From Lagierella massiliensis (lineage in GTDB: Bacteria > Bacillota > Clostridia > Tissierellales > Peptoniphilaceae): DNA of 64,000 nt. The DNA lies in assembly GCF_001407835.1 (NCBI RefSeq), contig NZ_CYUO01000005.1, positions 806,001 to 870,000 on the forward strand, written 5' to 3'. The position numbers and the translations under genes were made by a program. Shown piece after piece: positions 3,924 through 43,946 of this stretch; within the stretch, counting starts at the first letter, position 1; every line of letters begins with the position of its first letter. The notes under the pieces were generated by a model that saw only the letters and a list, made by a program, of their open reading frames with translations, was not told the DNA's origin and did no database searches.

Positions 3924-5120
3924 ATGTTAAATAAAAAAACTTTAAAAGATCTTAATGTTGAAGGCAAAAAAGTACTTGTAAGGGTGGATTTTAATGTACC
4001 TATATCATCTGAAACTGGCGAAATTTCAGATGACACAAGAATAGTTGCTTCCCTTGATACAATAAAATATTTATTAGATAATCATGCAAAGGTTATACTA
4101 ATGTCTCACTTGGGAAGACCAAAAAATGGACCAGAAAAGAAATTTTCATTAGAGCCTGTAGCTAAAAGGCTTTCTGAATTAATAGGAAAAGAAGTTAAAT
4201 TTTTACAATCAGATAAAGTGGTTGATGATAAAGTTAAAGAAGCTTGTAATAATTTAGAAAAAGGCGACATTGCTCTTTTAGAAAACACGAGATTTAGAGC
4301 TGAAGAAACCAAAAATGGAGATGAATTTGCAAAGGAATTAGCTTCACTTGCAGATTTATATGTTAATGATGCATTTGGTACTTCTCACAGAGCTCATGCT
4401 TCAAATGTAGGTGTGTCTAAGCATCTTGAGTCAGCTCTTGGTTTTTTAGTTGAGAAAGAAGTAAATGTAATGGGAAAGGCTTTAGAAAATCCAGAAAGAC
4501 CTTTTATAGCAATTCTTGGAGGAGCTAAAGTAAGTGACAAAATAGGAGTTATTGATAATTTACTTGAAAAAGTAGATGCTATTCTTATTGGTGGAGGAAT
4601 GGCTTGGACATTTTTAAAAGCTGAGGGATATGAAGTTGGCGGATCTCTTGTTGAAAATGACAAGTTGGATTTAGCAAAAGAACTTCTTAAAAAAGCAACT
4701 GAAAAGGGAGTTAAAATCTTTTTACCAATGGATGCAATTGTAGCTGAAGAAATGACAGAAGACTCTCCATCAAAAACTATTTCTATAAATGGTTTTACAC
4801 CAGATGATAAAGCTTTTGATATTGGACCAAGAACTGTTTCTGTATTTGTAGAAGAGATAAAAAAATCAAAAACAATTGTATGGAATGGTCCTATGGGTGT
4901 TTTTGAAATTAAACAATTTGCAAATGGAACTTTTGATATAGCAAAGGCTCTATCAGAAGTAGATGCTATTACAATAATAGGCGGAGGTGATTCTGCTTCA
5001 GCCATTGAAAAATCAGGATATAAAGATAAGGTAACTCATGTTTCTACTGGTGGAGGAGCTTCATTAGAATTTTTAGAAGGAAAGACTTTACCAGGAATTG
5101 AAGCCATATCAGATAAATAG
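3924..5120 (+). CDS. pgk: Phosphoglycerate kinase
   Basis: Transfers phosphate from 1,3-bisphosphoglycerate to ADP, the first ATP-yielding step of glycolysis. The N-terminal domain has VRVDFNVP (residues 21-28) and SHLGRP near 61, both substrate-binding. The nucleotide domain has [15 protein letters not shown] near 196-210 and the glycine-rich [11 protein letters not shown] near 351. Length 398 is standard. It starts 47 bases after gap, with AAAGGTGA upstream. It sits between the genes for the preceding and following three-carbon steps. Confidence 0.98.
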
Positions 5121-5128
5121 GAGGTAAA

Positions 5129-5875
5129 ATGCGTAAACCTATAATAGCGGGAAACTGGAAGATGAATAATACTCCATCTGATACAAAGGTATTTATAAGC
5201 TCCTTAAAACAAAAGGAGCTATCAGAAGATGTTGAAAAAATAATAGCAACTCCTTTTACTTCTCTTTATCTCGCTAATGAACTTTTAAATGATACAGATA
5301 TAAAAATTGGTGCTCAAAATATGTATTTTGAAGACAGAGGAGCTTTTACAGGAGAAGTCTCAGGACAAATGCTAAAAGATTTAAATGTATCTTATGTAAT
5401 TATTGGTCATTCAGAAAGAAGAGAGATTTTCAACGAATCTGATGAACTTCTAAACAAAAAAGTTAAGGCTGCTATTTCTAAAGAACTATCGCCAATCCTT
5501 TGTTGTGGTGAGACAATAGAAGAAAGAGAAGCTCAAAAGCACCAAGAAAAAATAAAAAATCAAATTACTAAGGATTTAGAAGGAATATCTGAAAAAGATT
5601 TAGACAAACTTGTTATAGCCTATGAACCAATTTGGGCAATCGGCACTGGTAAAACCGCTTCTCCTGAAGATGCTGAAGAAATGTGTAAATATATTAGAGA
5701 AATCTTGGAAGAGCTATATTCTAAAGATTTAGCAGACAATATAAGGATTTTATATGGTGGATCAGTAAAGCCTGAAAATGTTAAAGAAATTATGGCGAAA
5801 GAAAATGTTGACGGAGCTCTTGTCGGAGGAGCAAGTTTAAAGGTTGATAGTTTTACAAGTTTAATCAATTATTAA
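5129..5875 (+). CDS. tpiA: Triosephosphate isomerase
   Basis: Interconverts dihydroxyacetone phosphate and glyceraldehyde-3-phosphate. It begins with the canonical RKPIIAGNWKMN; the catalytic His is in VIIGHSERRE near residue 93 and the catalytic Glu in AYEPIWAIGTGKTAS near 165. The phosphate-gripping segments YGGSVKPEN and GALVGGASL lie near the C-terminus. Length 248 is typical of the family. It lies 8 bases after pgk with a consensus AGGAGGT, and the next gene starts 12 bases beyond its stop. Confidence 0.98.
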   Translation: MRKPIIAGNWKMNNTPSDTKVFISSLKQKELSEDVEKIIATPFTSLYLANELLNDTDIKIGAQNMYFEDRGAFTGEVSGQMLKDLNVSYVIIGHSERREIFNESDELLNKKVKAAISKELSPILCCGETIEEREAQKHQEKIKNQITKDLEGISEKDLDKLVIAYEPIWAIGTGKTASPEDAEEMCKYIREILEELYSKDLADNIRILYGGSVKPENVKEIMAKENVDGALVGGASLKVDSFTSLINY

Positions 5876-38037: not shown

Positions 38038-39093
38038 ATGAATATTTCAAGTGATAAGAATAAGAATGAATCGATACAAAACGCTTTTAAACATATTGAA
38101 AAACAATATGGCAAAGGTGCTGTTATGATTTTAGGAGAAGCGCCAAAACAACAAATAGATTCTATTTCAACAGGTGCAATTAACTTAGATGTAGCACTTG
38201 GTATTGGTGGAATTCCCAGAGGCAGGATTATTGAAATATATGGACCGGAATCTTCTGGTAAGACAACTCTTGCCCTTCATATTATTGCTGAAGCACAAAA
38301 AAAAGGTGGTATAGCTGCATTTATCGATGCGGAACATGCACTTGATCCAATTTATGCAAGCAATTTAGGTGTAAATATAGATGGGCTTATTGTATCTCAA
38401 CCAGATACTGGTGAACAAGGATTAGAGATTGCCGAATCATTAGTTAGAAGTAGTGCAATAGATGTTGTAGTTGTAGACTCTGTGGCTGCGCTTGTTCCAC
38501 GAGCTGAAATAGATGGGGATATGGGTGCTACCCATGTTGGACTTCAAGCAAGACTTATGTCCCAAGCCTTAAGAAAATTAGCTGGTGCTATTTCTAAAAG
38601 CAACACTTCTGTAATATTCATTAACCAACTTAGAGAAAAAGTTGGAGTTATGTTTGGAAACCCTGAAACTACAACAGGTGGCAGAGCTCTTAAATTCTAT
38701 TCCTCAGTTAGAATGGAAGTTAGAAGAGGAGAGCCTATTAAAAAAGGTGAAGATATAATCGGTAATAGAACAAAGGTAAAAGTCGTTAAAAATAAAGTAG
38801 CTCCACCTTTTAAACAAGTTGAATTTGATATAATGTATGGTGAAGGAATTTCTAAATTAGGAGCAATCCTTGATATGGCTTCTGATGTAGATATAATTAA
38901 AAAAGCTGGGGCATGGTACTCTTATGAAGATGAAAGACTTGGACAAGGTAGAGAGAACGCAAAAGATTATTTAGAAAAGAATCCAGACTTACTTAATGAA
39001 ATAACTGAAAAAGTATATCAACATTTCAATATAGCTGGTTATGAAGTTGAAGAAACAACATTAGATTTTAGTACTGATAAAGAAAATGATTAA
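38038..39093 (+). CDS. recA: Recombinase RecA
   Basis: ATP-dependent strand-exchange protein and co-protease for LexA. Walker A is [15 protein letters not shown] near residues 67-81. Further signatures are [24 protein letters not shown] and [20 protein letters not shown]. The [14 protein letters not shown] region and the C-terminal domain are intact. Length 351. GGAGAG precedes the start. I saw no LexA-box-like site immediately before it; it is probably transcribed with pgsA. No recX follows; a terminator and the Mre11-like gene do. Confidence 0.98.
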
Positions 39094-39115
39094 AACCTCC
39101 TGAAAGGGAGGTTTT
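39093..39115 (+). terminator. Terminator after recA
   Basis: AAACCTCC-TGAAAG-GGAGGTTT starts on the last base of the recA stop codon and ends in TTTT then CC. The stem is good; the T-run is short. Confidence 0.7.
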
Positions 39116-39129
39116 CCTATAGGTGAAAT

Positions 39130-40089
39130 ATGAAATTCTTATTTTTTACAGATACTCATATCAGGGCTTCAAATCCATCTTCAAGAAAAGACGATTATTT
39201 AGAATCATTGAAACTTAAATTTGAAGAAGTTGGAGAAATTGCTAATAATAACAATGTAGATTATATACTACATGGTGGTGATCTTTTTGATAGACCTGAT
39301 GTTCCTGTACGAATTGTAGGTTTATTTGCAAATATATTAAACTCGTATAATAAACCCATATACATTATTTCGGGAAATCATGATATATATGGACACAATC
39401 CAAAAACAGTTGAGAGGTCTATGCTTGGATTATTAAATCAGATTAATTTTGTAAATTTAATTAATTTTCAAGAACCCATTTTGCTTGAAGAGAATGATTT
39501 AAAAGTACAGATTTCAGGTGTTCCATACATTTATGATATAGATTCCAACTACAAAGATTATTATTTTCCAAAAAAACTTGACCATGTTGATTGTCATATA
39601 GTTATGATTCATAGTTTTCTAATCGATAAGCCATTTATAGATTCTATAAGTCATACTCTAATTGATGAAATAAAAGATGTGGACGCTGATATAGTTTTAG
39701 CTGGACATTATCATTCTGGATTTGGTGTAAAACGATTTAATGATAGATATTTTATCAATCCAGGATCTTTAGCAAGAACATATAACTCTACTCCAGAAAT
39801 AAAAAGAATTCCAAAAGTCGTTATTATAGAAATTTTAAAAAATAAAATTGAAATAAAAGAAATTGAATTAAAATCAGCAAAAGATGGGATTGATATTTTT
39901 AATAAAATTGAAGATAGATATAAGATAAGAAATGAACAGTTAGAAAATTTTAAACAACTTATAAGATCAAGTGGCAATTTAGAAAATTATAATACACTTG
40001 AAATTTTAAAGGAAATTTCTGAAGAAAAGAATTTTCCTAAACATATTTTAGATGAAGCTATTCGAAGGTTGGGAGAAGTAAATGAATAA
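39130..40089 (+). CDS. Mre11/SbcD-like calcineurin-type DNA nuclease
   Basis: Metallophosphoesterase of the Mre11/SbcD/gp47 class. All phosphoesterase motifs are visible: DTHI (Asp8, His10), HGGDLFD near residue 47-53, SGNHDIYGH near 80-88, MIHS near 159, and LAGHYHSG near 191-198. The C-terminal 90 residues form a charged helical region that could dock a Rad50 partner. Length 319 is somewhat shorter than SbcD. It overlaps the following Rad50-like gene by 8 bases, a strong sign of a nuclease-ATPase pair. Relation to E. coli SbcD is distant, so I give no gene symbol. Confidence 0.88.
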   Translation: MKFLFFTDTHIRASNPSSRKDDYLESLKLKFEEVGEIANNNNVDYILHGGDLFDRPDVPVRIVGLFANILNSYNKPIYIISGNHDIYGHNPKTVERSMLGLLNQINFVNLINFQEPILLEENDLKVQISGVPYIYDIDSNYKDYYFPKKLDHVDCHIVMIHSFLIDKPFIDSISHTLIDEIKDVDADIVLAGHYHSGFGVKRFNDRYFINPGSLARTYNSTPEIKRIPKVVIIEILKNKIEIKEIELKSAKDGIDIFNKIEDRYKIRNEQLENFKQLIRSSGNLENYNTLEILKEISEEKNFPKHILDEAIRRLGEVNE

Positions 40090-41389
40090 AGATATAAAAA
40101 TAGAATATATTGAAATATTAAACTTTCAATCCCATGCCAATACTAATCTTGATTTTGATGAAGGTGTAAATGTTATAATAGGACCTTCAGATAGCGGGAA
40201 AACAGCTGTAATAAGAGCTTTGAAATGGATTTTTTTTAATGAGCCATCAGGTACAGATATAATAAAAAAGGGAGAAGATTCAGCAAAAGTAACTTTAAAA
40301 TTAAATACAGGTTTTAAAATAATCAGAGGAAGAAGCAAGAGTAAAAATTATTACGAAATAATATCTCCTGAAAATGAAACTCAAAGGTTTGAAGGCTTCG
40401 GAGTAAATGTTCCTCAAGAAATAATAAATTTAACAGGAATTAATAAAATTGATCTTGGTAATATGAAGAAGTCTTTAAATATTGCTGAACAACTGGAAAG
40501 TCCATTTTTAATTACAGATAGTCCTTCAATTAAAGCTAATGCTCTTGGAAAATTAGCAGGAGTTGATATTATAGATAAAGCCTTAGGAAATTTATCTAAG
40601 GATATTTACGAAATTAATAGTGCCAGAAAATCTATTGAAAAGGAAATAAGAGATCAAAAGGATATTTTAAAAAATTTTGAGTACCTTAAAAATGATAAAA
40701 TTAAAATTGAAAGACTTGAATATCTATTTAATCAAGTAGATGAATACAAGACTAAACTAAATACTTTAAATGATTTAGAAAAAAAGTATTCTAATAATTT
40801 AGAAAAAACAAATCAGACAATAGAATATTTAGAAAAATTTAAAAATTTAGATGAACTTTTTCTAATATATGAAAAAATGGCATATAAAGTAAATAATCTT
40901 AAACTATATTCTAATTTAAACAACAAATTATTATATACTGATTCTAAAATTAAAGAATTAGAAATTTTATTAAATAAAATAGATACAGATAAAATTTCTA
41001 ATATTTATTCTAATATTTTAGAAATTAATAAAAATTTAGAAAAATATAAATCGGCTTATAAAAATCTTGTTAATATCAATAAACAGATAAATCAATTAGA
41101 AAAAAGTTTAAAAAAATATCCAGATATTCTTTATGTAGATAAATTGTTAGTAGAATTATCGACTTTAAATATAAATAAAGAGAAATTATCTAAACTTAAA
41201 AATAGCCTTGATAATGTAAATCAAAAATTAGAGGAAGGTAATAACTATGTAGAGAAATTGATTTCAAATTATAAAACTGCAGTTAATACCTATATAGAAT
41301 TATTAAAAGAAAGTGGCACATGTCCAATTTGTTATAATAAAATAGATGATGAACATATAGAAAGAATTCTTGAAGAATTAGAGGTTTAA
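40082..41389 (+). CDS. Rad50/SbcC-like ATPase, N-terminal half ending at the zinc hook
   Basis: SMC-type ATPase half. EILNFQSHANTNLDF opens the first ABC strand pair and Walker A is GPSDSGKT (residues 34-41). The Q-loop region lies near 125-150, followed by about 240 residues of coiled coil. GTCPICYNKI carries a C-x2-C zinc hook (Cys 414 and 417) only 18 residues before the stop. In canonical Rad50/SbcC the hook sits mid-protein and the chain returns through a second coil to the Walker B half. Here the chain stops after the hook and the second half is encoded separately. Length is 435 residues. Confidence 0.85.
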   Translation: MNKDIKIEYIEILNFQSHANTNLDFDEGVNVIIGPSDSGKTAVIRALKWIFFNEPSGTDIIKKGEDSAKVTLKLNTGFKIIRGRSKSKNYYEIISPENETQRFEGFGVNVPQEIINLTGINKIDLGNMKKSLNIAEQLESPFLITDSPSIKANALGKLAGVDIIDKALGNLSKDIYEINSARKSIEKEIRDQKDILKNFEYLKNDKIKIERLEYLFNQVDEYKTKLNTLNDLEKKYSNNLEKTNQTIEYLEKFKNLDELFLIYEKMAYKVNNLKLYSNLNNKLLYTDSKIKELEILLNKIDTDKISNIYSNILEINKNLEKYKSAYKNLVNINKQINQLEKSLKKYPDILYVDKLLVELSTLNINKEKLSKLKNSLDNVNQKLEEGNNYVEKLISNYKTAVNTYIELLKESGTCPICYNKIDDEHIERILEELEV

Positions 41390-41390
41390 T

Positions 41391-41636
41391 ATGGATAAAA
41401 AAACAGATTACAACACTGAATTAAATAATTTAAAGAAAAAATTAGATGTAGCTAAAGCTAATAAAACTAAGGCTGAAGGTATGCTTGAAAGTTTAAACAA
41501 CAATAAGGAAGAAATTATATTATCTATTAGGGAGCTTGGTATTGAACCAGAAAATCTTGAAAATGAAATACTTAATTTACAAACGCAAATAGACAGTTTA
41601 CTTTTTGAAGCTGAAAAATTATTATCAGAGGAATAA
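41391..41636 (+). CDS. 81-residue coiled-coil protein between the two Rad50 halves
   Basis: No family recognised. The protein is almost wholly heptad-like and charged (ELNNLKKKLDVAKANKTKAE, LENEILNLQTQIDSLLFEAE) with a short break around GIEPEN. It starts one base after the stop of the N-terminal ATPase half, with AGAGG upstream. It ends directly before the ATG of the C-terminal half (TAA-ATG). By position and structure it could supply part of the returning coiled-coil arm missing from the split ATPase. That is inference. Confidence 0.75.
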   Translation: MDKKTDYNTELNNLKKKLDVAKANKTKAEGMLESLNNNKEEIILSIRELGIEPENLENEILNLQTQIDSLLFEAEKLLSEE

Positions 41637-42287
41637 ATGATAGAGTTTGATTACAAAAAACTTAAAAATAGTTTTATAGATAAAAAAAATAAATACTATG
41701 AAGATCTTGGTGAAAAAAAATCTATTGAAAATAACATAAAAAGATTGGAAGAAAACTTAAAGAAAATAAATAACGAATCTGAAGATTTGATTCTTGTAGA
41801 TACTCTTTTGAAAGAAACCGCTGACTTCTCACGCTTACAATCTTCCAAAGAGATAGAGTCTATTGTAACAAGTTGTTTAGATCTTGTATTTAATTCTAAA
41901 ATGGAATTTAAAATAGAATTAAGTCAATTGAGAGGTAAAAACTCAGCAGAGTTTTTTATAATTGAAATGGATGAGGATAAAAAATATACTTATAAAATAG
42001 AGGATACAAGAGGTGGGGGAGTAATAGATATATTATCTCTCGCTCTTAGAATTGCATTTATATTGAAGATTTATCCACCTGTTAAAGGGCCAATTGTTCT
42101 GGATGAACCTGCAAAACATGTAAGTGATGACTATATCTTCAATATAGCTGATTTTATAAAAAAAATTTCTGAAGAATTTGATAAACAGATAATTATAATT
42201 TCTCATAATGAACATCTTTCATCTATAGGGGATAATAGTTATAAAATCTACAAGGAAAACTTACACTCTGTAGTAAATAGGCTATAA
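41637..42287 (+). CDS. Rad50/SbcC-like ATPase, C-terminal half
   Basis: The 216-residue product begins with about 60 residues of coiled coil, then the C-terminal ABC lobe. The signature region is DTRGGGVIDILSLALRIAF (123-141, replacing the usual LSGGE type). Walker B is PIVLDEPAKHVS (152-163) with catalytic Glu157, and the H-loop is IIISHNEH with His190. It lacks Walker A, which is encoded in 40082-41389, so the two must assemble to form an ATP site. AGAGGA precedes the ATG. The four-gene run has spacings of -8, +1 and 0 bases. A terminator precedes it after recA and a fresh promoter follows for rny. Confidence 0.83.
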   Translation: MIEFDYKKLKNSFIDKKNKYYEDLGEKKSIENNIKRLEENLKKINNESEDLILVDTLLKETADFSRLQSSKEIESIVTSCLDLVFNSKMEFKIELSQLRGKNSAEFFIIEMDEDKKYTYKIEDTRGGGVIDILSLALRIAFILKIYPPVKGPIVLDEPAKHVSDDYIFNIADFIKKISEEFDKQIIIISHNEHLSSIGDNSYKIYKENLHSVVNRL

Positions 42288-42298
42288 TGTTGACAAAT

Positions 42299-42327
42299 TT
42301 GACATTTTACTGTAAAAACATTATAAT
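42299..42327 (+). promoter_or_regulatory. Perfect-consensus sigma-A promoter of rny
   Basis: TTGACA (42299-42304), exactly 17 bases, then TATAAT (42322-42327). A second TTGACA at 42290-42295 lies just upstream but at 26-base spacing. This separates rny transcription from the Mre11/Rad50-like genes. Confidence 0.9.
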
Positions 42328-42401: not shown

Positions 42402-43946
42402 ATGGACAGTAATATTATTGCTATAATTGCAAGTTTGATAACCCTTGTAATCGGCTTGGCAGTCGGTTTTTTAATTAGAAAAAATATTGCTGAAAAACAA
42501 ATTGGGTCAGCGGAAGCTCATGCAGCTCAAATAATCAATGATGCTGGAAGAGAAGCTGAAACTACTAAAAAAGCAATGCTTCTTGAAGCTAAAGATGAAA
42601 TCTTTAAATTAAGAACCGATCAAGAAAACGAAAATCGAGAAAGAAGATTGGAAATCCAAAAATCTGAAAAAAGAATTCTTCAAAAAGAAGAAAACTTAGA
42701 AAAGAAGAGTGAAAAATTAGATTCTAAGATTCAAAAACTTGACTCAGATCTAAAAGATGTTGAAGAAAAAAATAAAGAAATTCAACAAATTTTAGAAAAG
42801 CAAAGTTCTGAATTGGAGAGAATAGCAGGTCTTACTGAAGACGAAGCTAAAGAAATTTTACTTTCAGATTTAAGAGAAAAGGTTACACATGAACAAGCAA
42901 TGATTATTAAGGAATTAGAAGCAGAAACTAAAGAAAAAGCTGATGATATTGCAAGAGATTTAGTTACCACTTCTATACAAAGATATGCAGCAGATTTTGT
43001 AGCAGAATCCACAGTTTCAGTTGTTTCACTACCAAATGATGAAATGAAAGGTAGGATTATAGGTAGGGAAGGTAGAAATATAAAAGCCTTTGAGACTCTT
43101 ACAGGTGTTGATTTAATCATAGATGATACTCCTGAAGCAGTTGTATTATCTGCATTTAATCCAGTTAGACGTGAAATAGCAAGAATTACATTGGAAAGAC
43201 TTATTATGGATGGTAGAATTCATCCTACAAGGATTGAAGATTTATTTGAGAAATCAACTCAAGAAGTTGAGCAAGCTATTAAAAAACATGGTGAAGAAGC
43301 GTGTTATGAAGTAGGATTACATGGAATTCATCCAGAGTTAATAAAACTTTTAGGAAAGTTGAATTACAGAACAAGTTATGGTCAAAATGTTCTTAAACAC
43401 TCTGTAGAAGTTGCTCAAATAGCAGGAATGTTAGCTCAAGAAGTTGGAGCTGATGTAAGACTTGCTAAAAGAGGCGGCTTAATGCATGATTTAGGAAAAG
43501 CTATTGACCATGAAATAGAAGGACCTCATGTTCAACTTGGAGTTCAAGCAGCTAAAAGATATAAAGAAAAACCTGAAGTTATAAATTGTATTGAATCTCA
43601 CCATGGAGATGTTGAGCCAACTTGTATTGAAGCTATATTGGTTCAAGCTGCAGATGCTATTTCAGCCGCTAGACCTGGAGCCAGAAGAGAAGCTATAGAG
43701 TCATATATCCAAAGACTCGAAAATCTTGAAGCAATAGCTAATTCATTTGATAGTGTTGACAATTCTTTTGCTATTCAAGCTGGTAGAGAACTTAGAATTA
43801 TGGTAAAACCAGATAAGATTTCAGAAGACGAGATGACTTTACTTGCAAGAGATATAGCATCAAGAATAGAAAATGAATTGGAATATCCAGGACAAATAAA
43901 AGTTAATGTTGTTCGAGAAATTAGATCAATAGATTATGCTAAATAG
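42402..43946 (+). CDS. rny: Ribonuclease Y
   Basis: Membrane-anchored endoribonuclease that initiates mRNA decay in Firmicutes. The N-terminal transmembrane helix ([20 protein letters not shown]) is followed by a long coiled coil (to about residue 200) and a KH domain ([20 protein letters not shown]). The HD domain has [14 protein letters not shown]. The start is ATG 42402 (514 residues), with AAGGGGG at 42388-42394; the in-frame TTG at 42396 is too close to that site. Own promoter upstream and strong terminator downstream. Confidence 0.97.

What the first reader, a model, noticed from the sequence alone, without database searches (positions are those of the whole stretch)
39130..42287. Rad50-like ATPase split over three genes with an Mre11-like nuclease, between recA and rny
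Seen directly: a calcineurin-type nuclease (motifs DTH, GGDLFD, SGNHD, GHYHSG) is followed at spacings of -8, +1 and 0 bases by three genes. The first encodes the Walker A half and a long coil, with CPIC only 18 residues before its stop. The second encodes an 81-residue coiled coil. The third encodes the signature/Walker B/H-loop half. Known: in SbcC/Rad50 these parts form one chain with the zinc hook in the middle. Each piece has its own ATG and Shine-Dalgarno, so this looks like designed separation, not decay. The returning arm (81 plus about 60 residues) is much shorter than the outgoing coil (about 240), so the arms cannot be symmetrical. The signature motif is RGGG-x4-LS rather than LSGGE. 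I infer a divergent, multi-subunit Mre11-Rad50 machine, possibly of phage origin, in the recA neighbourhood.
Basis: partly seen in the sequence, partly recalled or inferred. Interest (0 to 1): 0.78.

Follow-up and report, generated by a model that had tools for sequence, protein, structure and literature searches.

The report
Rad50 repair ATPase in three pieces
A DNA-break repair machine whose Rad50 part is normally one long chain is here, and in many related anaerobic bacteria and phages, encoded as three separate proteins beside its nuclease, and it seems to stand in for the usual version.

Summary
It is neither decay nor a frameshift. The order is kept in 29 of 31 strong relatives (two are cut by contig ends) and 63 of 80 genome loci, and in other orders in phages. 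N-half, coil and C-half are never joined in 123 loci holding all three. In 8 of 8 tested genomes with a lone C-half beside or apart from rny, the other parts lie elsewhere (1.09 Mb away in Pseudobacteroides), so they must act in trans. A read-through model of a relative folds both halves into one Rad50-like head (Z 28.6); the nuclease matches Mre11 (Z 26.2). Split form and single-chain SbcC nearly exclude each other (2 of 398 genomes have both, 27 expected); in 7 of 9 SbcC relatives recA lies next to rny with nothing between. Best reading: a heterotrimeric Rad50 with Mre11 doing SbcCD's job, kin to phage systems. Binding and activity are untested. The ABC signature serine is missing in at least 168 of 175, so this is a variant, not canonical SbcCD. 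Nine literature searches gave no description of it.

The parts
39130..40089 (+). Mre11/SbcD-like nuclease subunit (319 aa) with the residues of the calcineurin-type metal site
   Evidence: D8 H10 D51 H84 H161 H193 H195 invariant in 32 rows, N83 in at least 90%; 50 rows: H10 and H193 in at least 90%, the others invariant; Mre11 Z 26.2
40082..41389 (+). Rad50 N-half (435 aa): Walker A GPSDSGKT, Q-loop, long outgoing coil, zinc hook CPIC 18 residues before the end
   Evidence: searches (phrog_16465 2.7e-75; G39 K40 and C414 P415 C417 invariant in 33 rows), and on a relative
41391..41636 (+). 81-aa coiled-coil piece, read as the middle of the returning Rad50 arm (inference)
   Evidence: 33 rows aligned; found in 123 loci that hold all three parts
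41637..42287 (+). Rad50 C-half (216 aa): end of the returning coil, signature RGGG, Walker B VLDEPAKH, H-loop
   Evidence: searches (phrog_15167 2.9e-48; D156 E157 H190 invariant in 34 rows; Rad50 chains down to 8.1e-10), and on a relative
38038..39093 (+). recA (label from sequence), conserved upstream neighbour
42402..43946 (+). rny, ribonuclease Y (label recalled from sequence), conserved downstream neighbour; start taken at the ATG

Best explanation
The four genes encode a Mre11-Rad50-type DNA-end processing machine whose Rad50 is a heterotrimer. The N-half supplies Walker A, Q-loop, the outgoing coil and the zinc hook; the 81-aa protein supplies the middle of the returning arm; the C-half supplies the arm's last part and the signature, Walker B and H-loop. 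N-half and C-half join into one ABC ATPase head, two such heads close on ATP over a Mre11-like nuclease dimer, and two hooks pair through zinc to tether ends. It would trim or cut blocked, hairpin or broken DNA ends and hand them to AddAB/RecA, in place of single-chain SbcCD. Shown here: conserved parts and catalytic residues, a composite head in a model of a relative, permanent separation of the genes, near exclusion with SbcC, neighbourhood with recA and, for one fused member, addB. Inferred: that the proteins bind each other, stoichiometry, ATPase and nuclease activity, the repair role.
For: Separate genes kept over deep time: four-gene order in 29 of 31 strong relatives and 63 of 80 genome loci (the two samples overlap); no N-half/coil or coil/C-half fusion in 123 loci with all three. 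All three frame relations occur between neighbours. In 8 of 8 genomes tested whose C-half stood alone, nuclease, N-half and coil form a cluster elsewhere. Read-through model of a Caloramator relative: head pLDDT mostly above 85; P. furiosus Rad50 Z 28.6, rmsd 3.0, 292 of 311 residues with both halves; E. coli SbcCD head Z 23.8. Nuclease model: human Mre11 Z 26.2. Walker A, Walker B and hook residues invariant in the first alignments. One family with nuclease, N-lobe and C-lobe in one coil-less chain, next to addB in the locus examined. Exclusion with SbcC: 2 of 398 genomes have both, 27.3 expected; 1 of 61 in the closer sample; recA beside rny with nothing between in 7 of 9 SbcC genomes.
Against: No binding or activity data. 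The signature serine of ABC ATPases is absent or nearly so, which could mean altered ATP use. SMC heads match the model as well as Rad50 does (Z 28.5 and 28.6). Beyond residue 200 the coil has pLDDT 32-85, so the place of the 81-aa piece is not fixed; pTM is 0.54. Arm lengths do not match. The exclusion counts are over related genomes, were copied by hand, and one search scored two candidates a genome; 168 of 398 and 11 of 61 genomes have neither system at these thresholds, so neither is indispensable. G010, G156 and G444 carry both.
Confidence: 0.85

Rival explanations
1. Recent decay: an ordinary single-chain Rad50 gene broken by frameshifts or by sequencing errors.
For: The pieces touch or overlap; one relative (G015) has a frame break inside its C-half.
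Against: The same two breaks stand in 123 of 123 loci with all three parts; residues of all parts stay conserved; no relative examined has the joined chain at this site.
Confidence: 0.01
2. Programmed frameshifting or stop read-through makes one chain from the three reading frames.
For: Neighbouring frames overlap or lie a few bases apart in many loci.
Against: Frame relations 0, 1 and 2 occur in each group; the C-half gene is apart from the rest in 8 of 8 genomes tested; unrelated genes lie between the parts in some loci: DNA polymerase III alpha (L074), ParB (L273), and AP2/HNH-like genes whose Pfam matches are below cut-off.
Confidence: 0.02
3. A phage-derived module with a job other than repair, such as anti-phage defence, in the manner of Lamassu or Gabija ATPases.
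For: Kin in phages and plasmids; PADLOC matches of the N-half to LmuB (4.8e-15) and GajA (6.4e-11) and of the C-half to mad3 (1.1e-6) and LmuB (9.8e-6).
Against: The chromosomal copy sits at one fixed place beside recA in many genera; near exclusion with SbcC; a Rad50 model scores better on the N-half (1.7e-20), the C-half's best NCBIfam match is also a Rad50 model (1e-8), and no match was found to an effector or TOPRIM domain in the four proteins.
Confidence: 0.07
4. N-half and C-half work as separate ATPases or regulators and do not share one ATP site.
For: Separate loci in one lineage; altered signature.
Against: Neither half has a full set of ABC motifs alone; they co-occur (N-half found in 8 of 8 genomes with a lone C-half; 74 of 80 viral loci have matches to both); natural one-chain version; composite head in the model.
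Confidence: 0.05

Closest known systems
Mre11-Rad50 / SbcD-SbcC (bacterial SbcCD, archaeal and eukaryotic MR)
   Same: Nuclease fold and metal-site residues, Walker A, Q-loop, Walker B, H-loop, zinc hook CPxC, SMC/Rad50-like head with coil
   Different: Rad50 in three polypeptides; signature GGG instead of SGG; short returning arm; no Rad50, sbcC or sbcd model of NCBIfam reaches its cut-off, but 0 of 398 genomes of the phylum sample reaches the sbcC cut-off either
Mre11/Rad50 fusion proteins (Yoshida, Claverie and Ogata 2011, PMC3175470; abstract, passages and the first part of the discussion seen)
   Same: Nuclease joined to a Rad50 N-lobe in phage and plasmids; the paper notes that in Anaerostipes and Bacillus phage 0305phi8-36 one P-loop NTPase segment was not observed
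   Different: In what I saw the paper does not report a separate C-half gene. Contig L081 (218,948 bases; I recall this as that phage's length, no call confirms it) has the C-half gene about 1 kb downstream of its fusion
PHROG families phrog_16465 'exonuclease' and phrog_15167 'ATPase'
   Same: The same N-half and C-half as separate phage proteins
   Different: Filed as two families; their descriptions do not say that they are two parts of one ATPase
T4 gp46/gp47
   Same: Phage Rad50/Mre11 for recombination-dependent replication (as told in PMC3175470)
   Different: gp46 is one chain (recalled)
Split phage DNA polymerase III alpha and RNA polymerase subunits of jumbo phages (PMC7824862; passages seen)
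   Same: Precedent for phage enzymes split into separately encoded parts
   Different: Other enzymes; the passages name SbcC as an ABC ATPase and report no split of it

Membership tests
SbcCD / Mre11-Rad50 | Mre11-type nuclease fold with the metal-site residues (set recalled) | tested here: met
SbcCD / Mre11-Rad50 | Rad50 N-lobe with Walker A and Q-loop | tested here: met
   G39 K40 invariant in 33 rows, Q137 in at least 90%
SbcCD / Mre11-Rad50 | Rad50 C-lobe with Walker B and H-loop | tested here: met
   D156 E157 H190 invariant in 34 rows
SbcCD / Mre11-Rad50 | ABC signature with serine (SGG) | tested here: not met
   first G[GD]G motif of 175 C-half ORFs is xGGG[VI] in 168, with R at x in 126 and S at x in 7. 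The profile alignment to P. furiosus Rad50 sets GGG on SGG, so the serine would be missing in all; if x is the serine's place (second alignment) it is missing in 168 of 175
SbcCD / Mre11-Rad50 | Zinc hook CxxC at the coil tip | tested here: met
   (33 of 33 rows): CPxC in 145 of 154 N-half ORFs, CxxC in 3 more, none in 6; the 154 include fragments and the three coil-less fusions
SbcCD / Mre11-Rad50 | N- and C-lobe form one ABC head | tested here: met
   in a model of a relative (L190) read through its stops, not of the window's own proteins and not an experiment; SMC heads match equally well
SbcCD / Mre11-Rad50 | Both lobes on one polypeptide | tested here: not met
   exception: three coil-less one-chain members
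SbcCD / Mre11-Rad50 | Rad50-binding helices at the nuclease's C-terminus | tested here: inconclusive
   helices at 262-280, 289-300, 304-318, pLDDT 59-89; some Rad50-bound Mre11 chains align to residue 319 but with rmsd 7.6-17.2
SbcCD / Mre11-Rad50 | ATP-dependent nuclease on DNA ends and hairpins | not testable with these tools
   needs purified proteins
Lamassu (LmuB) / Gabija (GajA) defence ATPases | Effector partner, or TOPRIM domain on the ATPase (recalled) | tested here: inconclusive
   ATPase-lobe matches only, no effector or TOPRIM match among the four window proteins; neighbours in other loci were not scanned against PADLOC

The most novel reading that the evidence does not exclude
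A Rad50 that is assembled and may be taken apart: since the C-half and the middle arm are free subunits made from their own genes (in one lineage from another place in the genome), the cell or phage could switch the machine by supplying or withdrawing one half of the ATPase, and the arm could be opened sideways without opening the hook or the heads. The state is old, held by natural selection over many bacterial genera and phages, and shows that a continuous Rad50 chain is not needed.
Probability: 0.25. Interest if true: 0.8.

Novelty: new variant of a known kind. Interest (0 to 1): 0.64.

Why it matters
Rad50 and SMC proteins are understood as single chains that go out along an arm and come back; models of signalling between hook and head rest on that (established knowledge, recalled). 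Here the returning arm is cut twice and kept so across an order and beyond, where SbcC is mostly missing. It gives a natural test of which arm connections matter, gives sense to annotations such as 'hypothetical protein' and 'chromosome partitioning protein ParA', may complete some 'incomplete' Mre11-Rad50 fusions of phages and plasmids, and offers small separate subunits for biochemistry. It also means that absence of SbcC in surveys of these bacteria may be misread as absence of the pathway.

Tried and rejected
Frameshift, read-through and decay: rejected, see rivals. Defence system: ATPase-lobe matches only. A single-chain Rad50 at the same site in relatives: looked for and not found in the loci examined. 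Arm pairing: I found no model coordinates in the Python box, so arm geometry was not measured. First alignments of the joined chain with single pieces failed, since MAFFT spread the pieces; rows read through in frame anchored them (checked in 56). Identity of L081 with phage 0305phi8-36: the near-identity search of the phage collection gave no match and the accession is not held there, so it stays a recollection. Which residue stands at the signature serine: single-sequence alignments differ (R or G); the profile alignment to P. furiosus Rad50 favours G. Literature (open-licence PMC papers only): nine searches bearing on the split and one on the signature; three returned nothing, the others I saw as listings. 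PMC3175470 (abstract, passages, part of the discussion) is the nearest; of PMC7824862, PMC9389158, PMC12153180 and PMC12474458 I saw passages only, and these do not describe a split Rad50. Rows dropped: near-identical loci when choosing rows for tree and alignments; L066-L070; fused ORFs in the row choice; L158 and L161. The middle of the listing was cut from view; the tallies cover all 176 loci.
Full report
Check of the observation. Searches confirm the four open frames, their lengths and spacings, the motifs and the place of CPIC, 18 residues before the stop of the second gene. Pfam finds Metallophos (5.4e-17), AAA_23 (1.4e-13), Rad50_zn_hook (1.2e-5) and, below its cut-off, SMC_N in the C-half (8.1e-5). 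PHROGs hold the N-half and the C-half as two separate phage families, 'exonuclease' and 'ATPase'. PDB sequence searches give Rad50 for the N-half (1.8e-8), the C-half (3.8e-4) and the C-half profile (8.1e-10).

The split is old. Among 61 genomes (own and relatives) 37 have a match to the C-half at E 0.001, 32 of them below 1e-30. I fetched the 31 strong ones other than the window's: 29 show nuclease, N-half, coil, C-half in that order (in one, L057, the C-half is frame-broken); the other two, L065 and L066, are cut by contig ends. RecA lies next upstream in 28 of 29 (L045 ends before it) and Rny follows in 23 of 29. A scan of one genome per species found 282 relatives, 80 kept, partly the same species: 63 of 80 have the full order, among them Tissierella, Finegoldia, Peptoniphilus, Caloramator, Tepidanaerobacter and Natroniella. 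Viral contigs gave 120 relatives, 80 kept: 35 have N-half, coil, C-half, nuclease and 33 have N-half, nuclease, (coil), C-half; 74 of 80 have matches to both halves; 16 of 80 also show a RecA-like recombinase in the fetched stretch. Named records show the same: Bacillus phage vB_BboS-125, a B. velezensis and an Alkaliphilus plasmid, and Geobacillus and P. polymyxa plasmids with nuclease and N-half apparently joined; in Microbacterium phage Magritte the two halves lie some 93 kb apart in the record.

Not rejoined, and acting in trans. Over 176 loci (80 viral, 80 genome, 16 further stretches) 123 hold N-half, coil and C-half; none joins N-half to coil or coil to C-half. Four of the 176 join nuclease to N-half. 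Three, all in one family of the phylum sample, join nuclease, N-lobe and C-lobe in one chain of 684-700 aa with Walker A, GGG and Walker B but no CxxC and no room for a long coil; in the one I examined (L263) the next gene is addB. The frames of neighbouring parts stand in all three relations. Fourteen of 80 genome loci show the C-half without the other parts (two of these are short stretches). I tested eight of the fourteen genomes: the N-half is present in 8 of 8 and sits in a nuclease, N-half, coil cluster with pgsA within a few kb in 8 of 8. In Pseudobacteroides both places are on one contig of 6,878,816 bases, 1.09 Mb apart; in L226's genome they are on one contig about 20 kb apart; in the other six they are on contigs of different length. 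Between the parts some loci hold DNA polymerase III alpha (L074), ParB (L273) or AP2/HNH-like genes with sub-threshold Pfam matches (L104, L138, L003).

Fold. The model has mean pLDDT 79.5 and pTM 0.54; the head lobes are mostly above 85, the coil beyond residue 200 is 32-85. VIA-align gives P. furiosus Rad50 4ncj_A Z 28.6, rmsd 3.0, 292 of 311 residues, over model residues 2-782, SMC heads at nearly the same Z (28.5), and E. coli SbcCD heads 23.8. So the head is of the Rad50/SMC kind; the Z values alone do not choose Rad50 over SMC. The hook, the nuclease partner and the sequence matches do. The window's nuclease models at pLDDT 91.5 and matches human Mre11 at Z 26.2, rmsd 2.6, 248 residues, E. 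coli SbcD 23.9, other phosphoesterases 18-19.

What differs. In 175 C-half ORFs the first motif of the kind is xGGG[VI] in 168, with R at x in 126 and S in 7 (near-identical phages are counted singly). The profile alignment puts GGG on the SGG of P. furiosus Rad50. I recall that changing this serine to arginine in Rad50 impairs ATP binding (PDB 1us8, listed; I saw no paper on it beyond the listing). The returning arm is short: coil and C-half are nearly constant in length (medians 82 and 219 aa in genome loci) while the N-half varies (435-486 at the 5-95% limits in genome loci, 340-520 in viral ones). In the model the outgoing arm breaks near residues 196, 256, 296 and 343; it may partly fold on itself. 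This is inference.

Standing in for SbcCD. With the NCBIfam sbcC model on the same 61 genomes, a match below 1e-20 occurs in 19, the split C-half in 32, both in one (G010), neither in 11; Fisher 5e-7. In 398 genomes spread over the phylum the numbers are 167 (E up to 2e-20), 65 (E below 1e-30), two with both (27.3 expected) and 168 with neither; Fisher 1.2e-14. Both doubles, G156 and G444, have the phage gene order and fall among viral rows in the nuclease tree, so they look like prophage copies; I did not examine their surroundings. Genomes share ancestry, so these p-values overstate the evidence, and the large 'neither' class shows that many genomes lack both. In ten relatives with SbcC, recA and rny were each found in nine; in seven of nine they are neighbours, 14 to about 500 bases apart, without a match to the four genes; in two they lie on different contigs. 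So the site is empty there.

Origin. In a tree of 101 nuclease rows the chromosomal rows other than G156 and G444 lie in one supported set of 45 (SH-aLRT 98) that also holds one viral contig and two plasmids; the remaining rows are viral contigs, one phage, one plasmid and those two. This fits a single settling of a phage or plasmid module in chromosomes, but the root is a midpoint.

Verdict. A real, widespread variant of Mre11-Rad50 that I found described nowhere in nine searches of open-licence papers. It works, most likely, like SbcCD; by the tests it is not a canonical member (signature serine and single chain not met). Biochemistry is untested.

Noticed in passing
L262, L263, L264 (genomes G422, G103, G358; one family, f71): One-chain version of 684-700 aa: nuclease, N-lobe and C-lobe without hook or long coil; in L263 the next gene is addB. 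A coil-less Mre11-Rad50 head.
   Followed up: partly
L057 about 4965-5640 (genome G015): The C-half gene has a frame break in its coil part while the head lobe stays open; a real frameshift or an assembly error.
   Followed up: partly
window 39092-39115: Hairpin of 9 pairs between recA and the nuclease gene, terminator-like on the minus strand; possible attenuator or recA terminator.
   Followed up: no
window 42299-42327: Full consensus TTGACA-17-TATAAT right after the C-half gene, in front of rny (promoter-like sites as a whole are no more frequent than in shuffles).
   Followed up: no
L003 7407-7979, L104 4909-5448, L138 4661-5170 (similar-looking genes without a Pfam match in L102, L103): Genes with sub-threshold AP2 or HNH matches, as in homing endonucleases, sit in the gap between N-half and coil in some phages; such an insertion might have made or kept the split.
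   Followed up: partly
L074 2120-5626: A DNA polymerase III alpha gene stands between N-half and coil.
   Followed up: yes
L081: Viral contig of 218,948 bases with a nuclease+N-half fusion and a separate C-half, perhaps phage 0305phi8-36, whose fusion was reported as lacking one NTPase segment (PMC3175470).
   Followed up: partly
G000:C4:136702-136902: A 683-aa frame of the window's genome with an SbcC-like first 66 residues (9.8e-10); not identified.
   Followed up: no
L168 4274-5726 (Tissierella sp. P1): The N-half is open in two pieces only; a broken gene or a low-quality contig.
   Followed up: no
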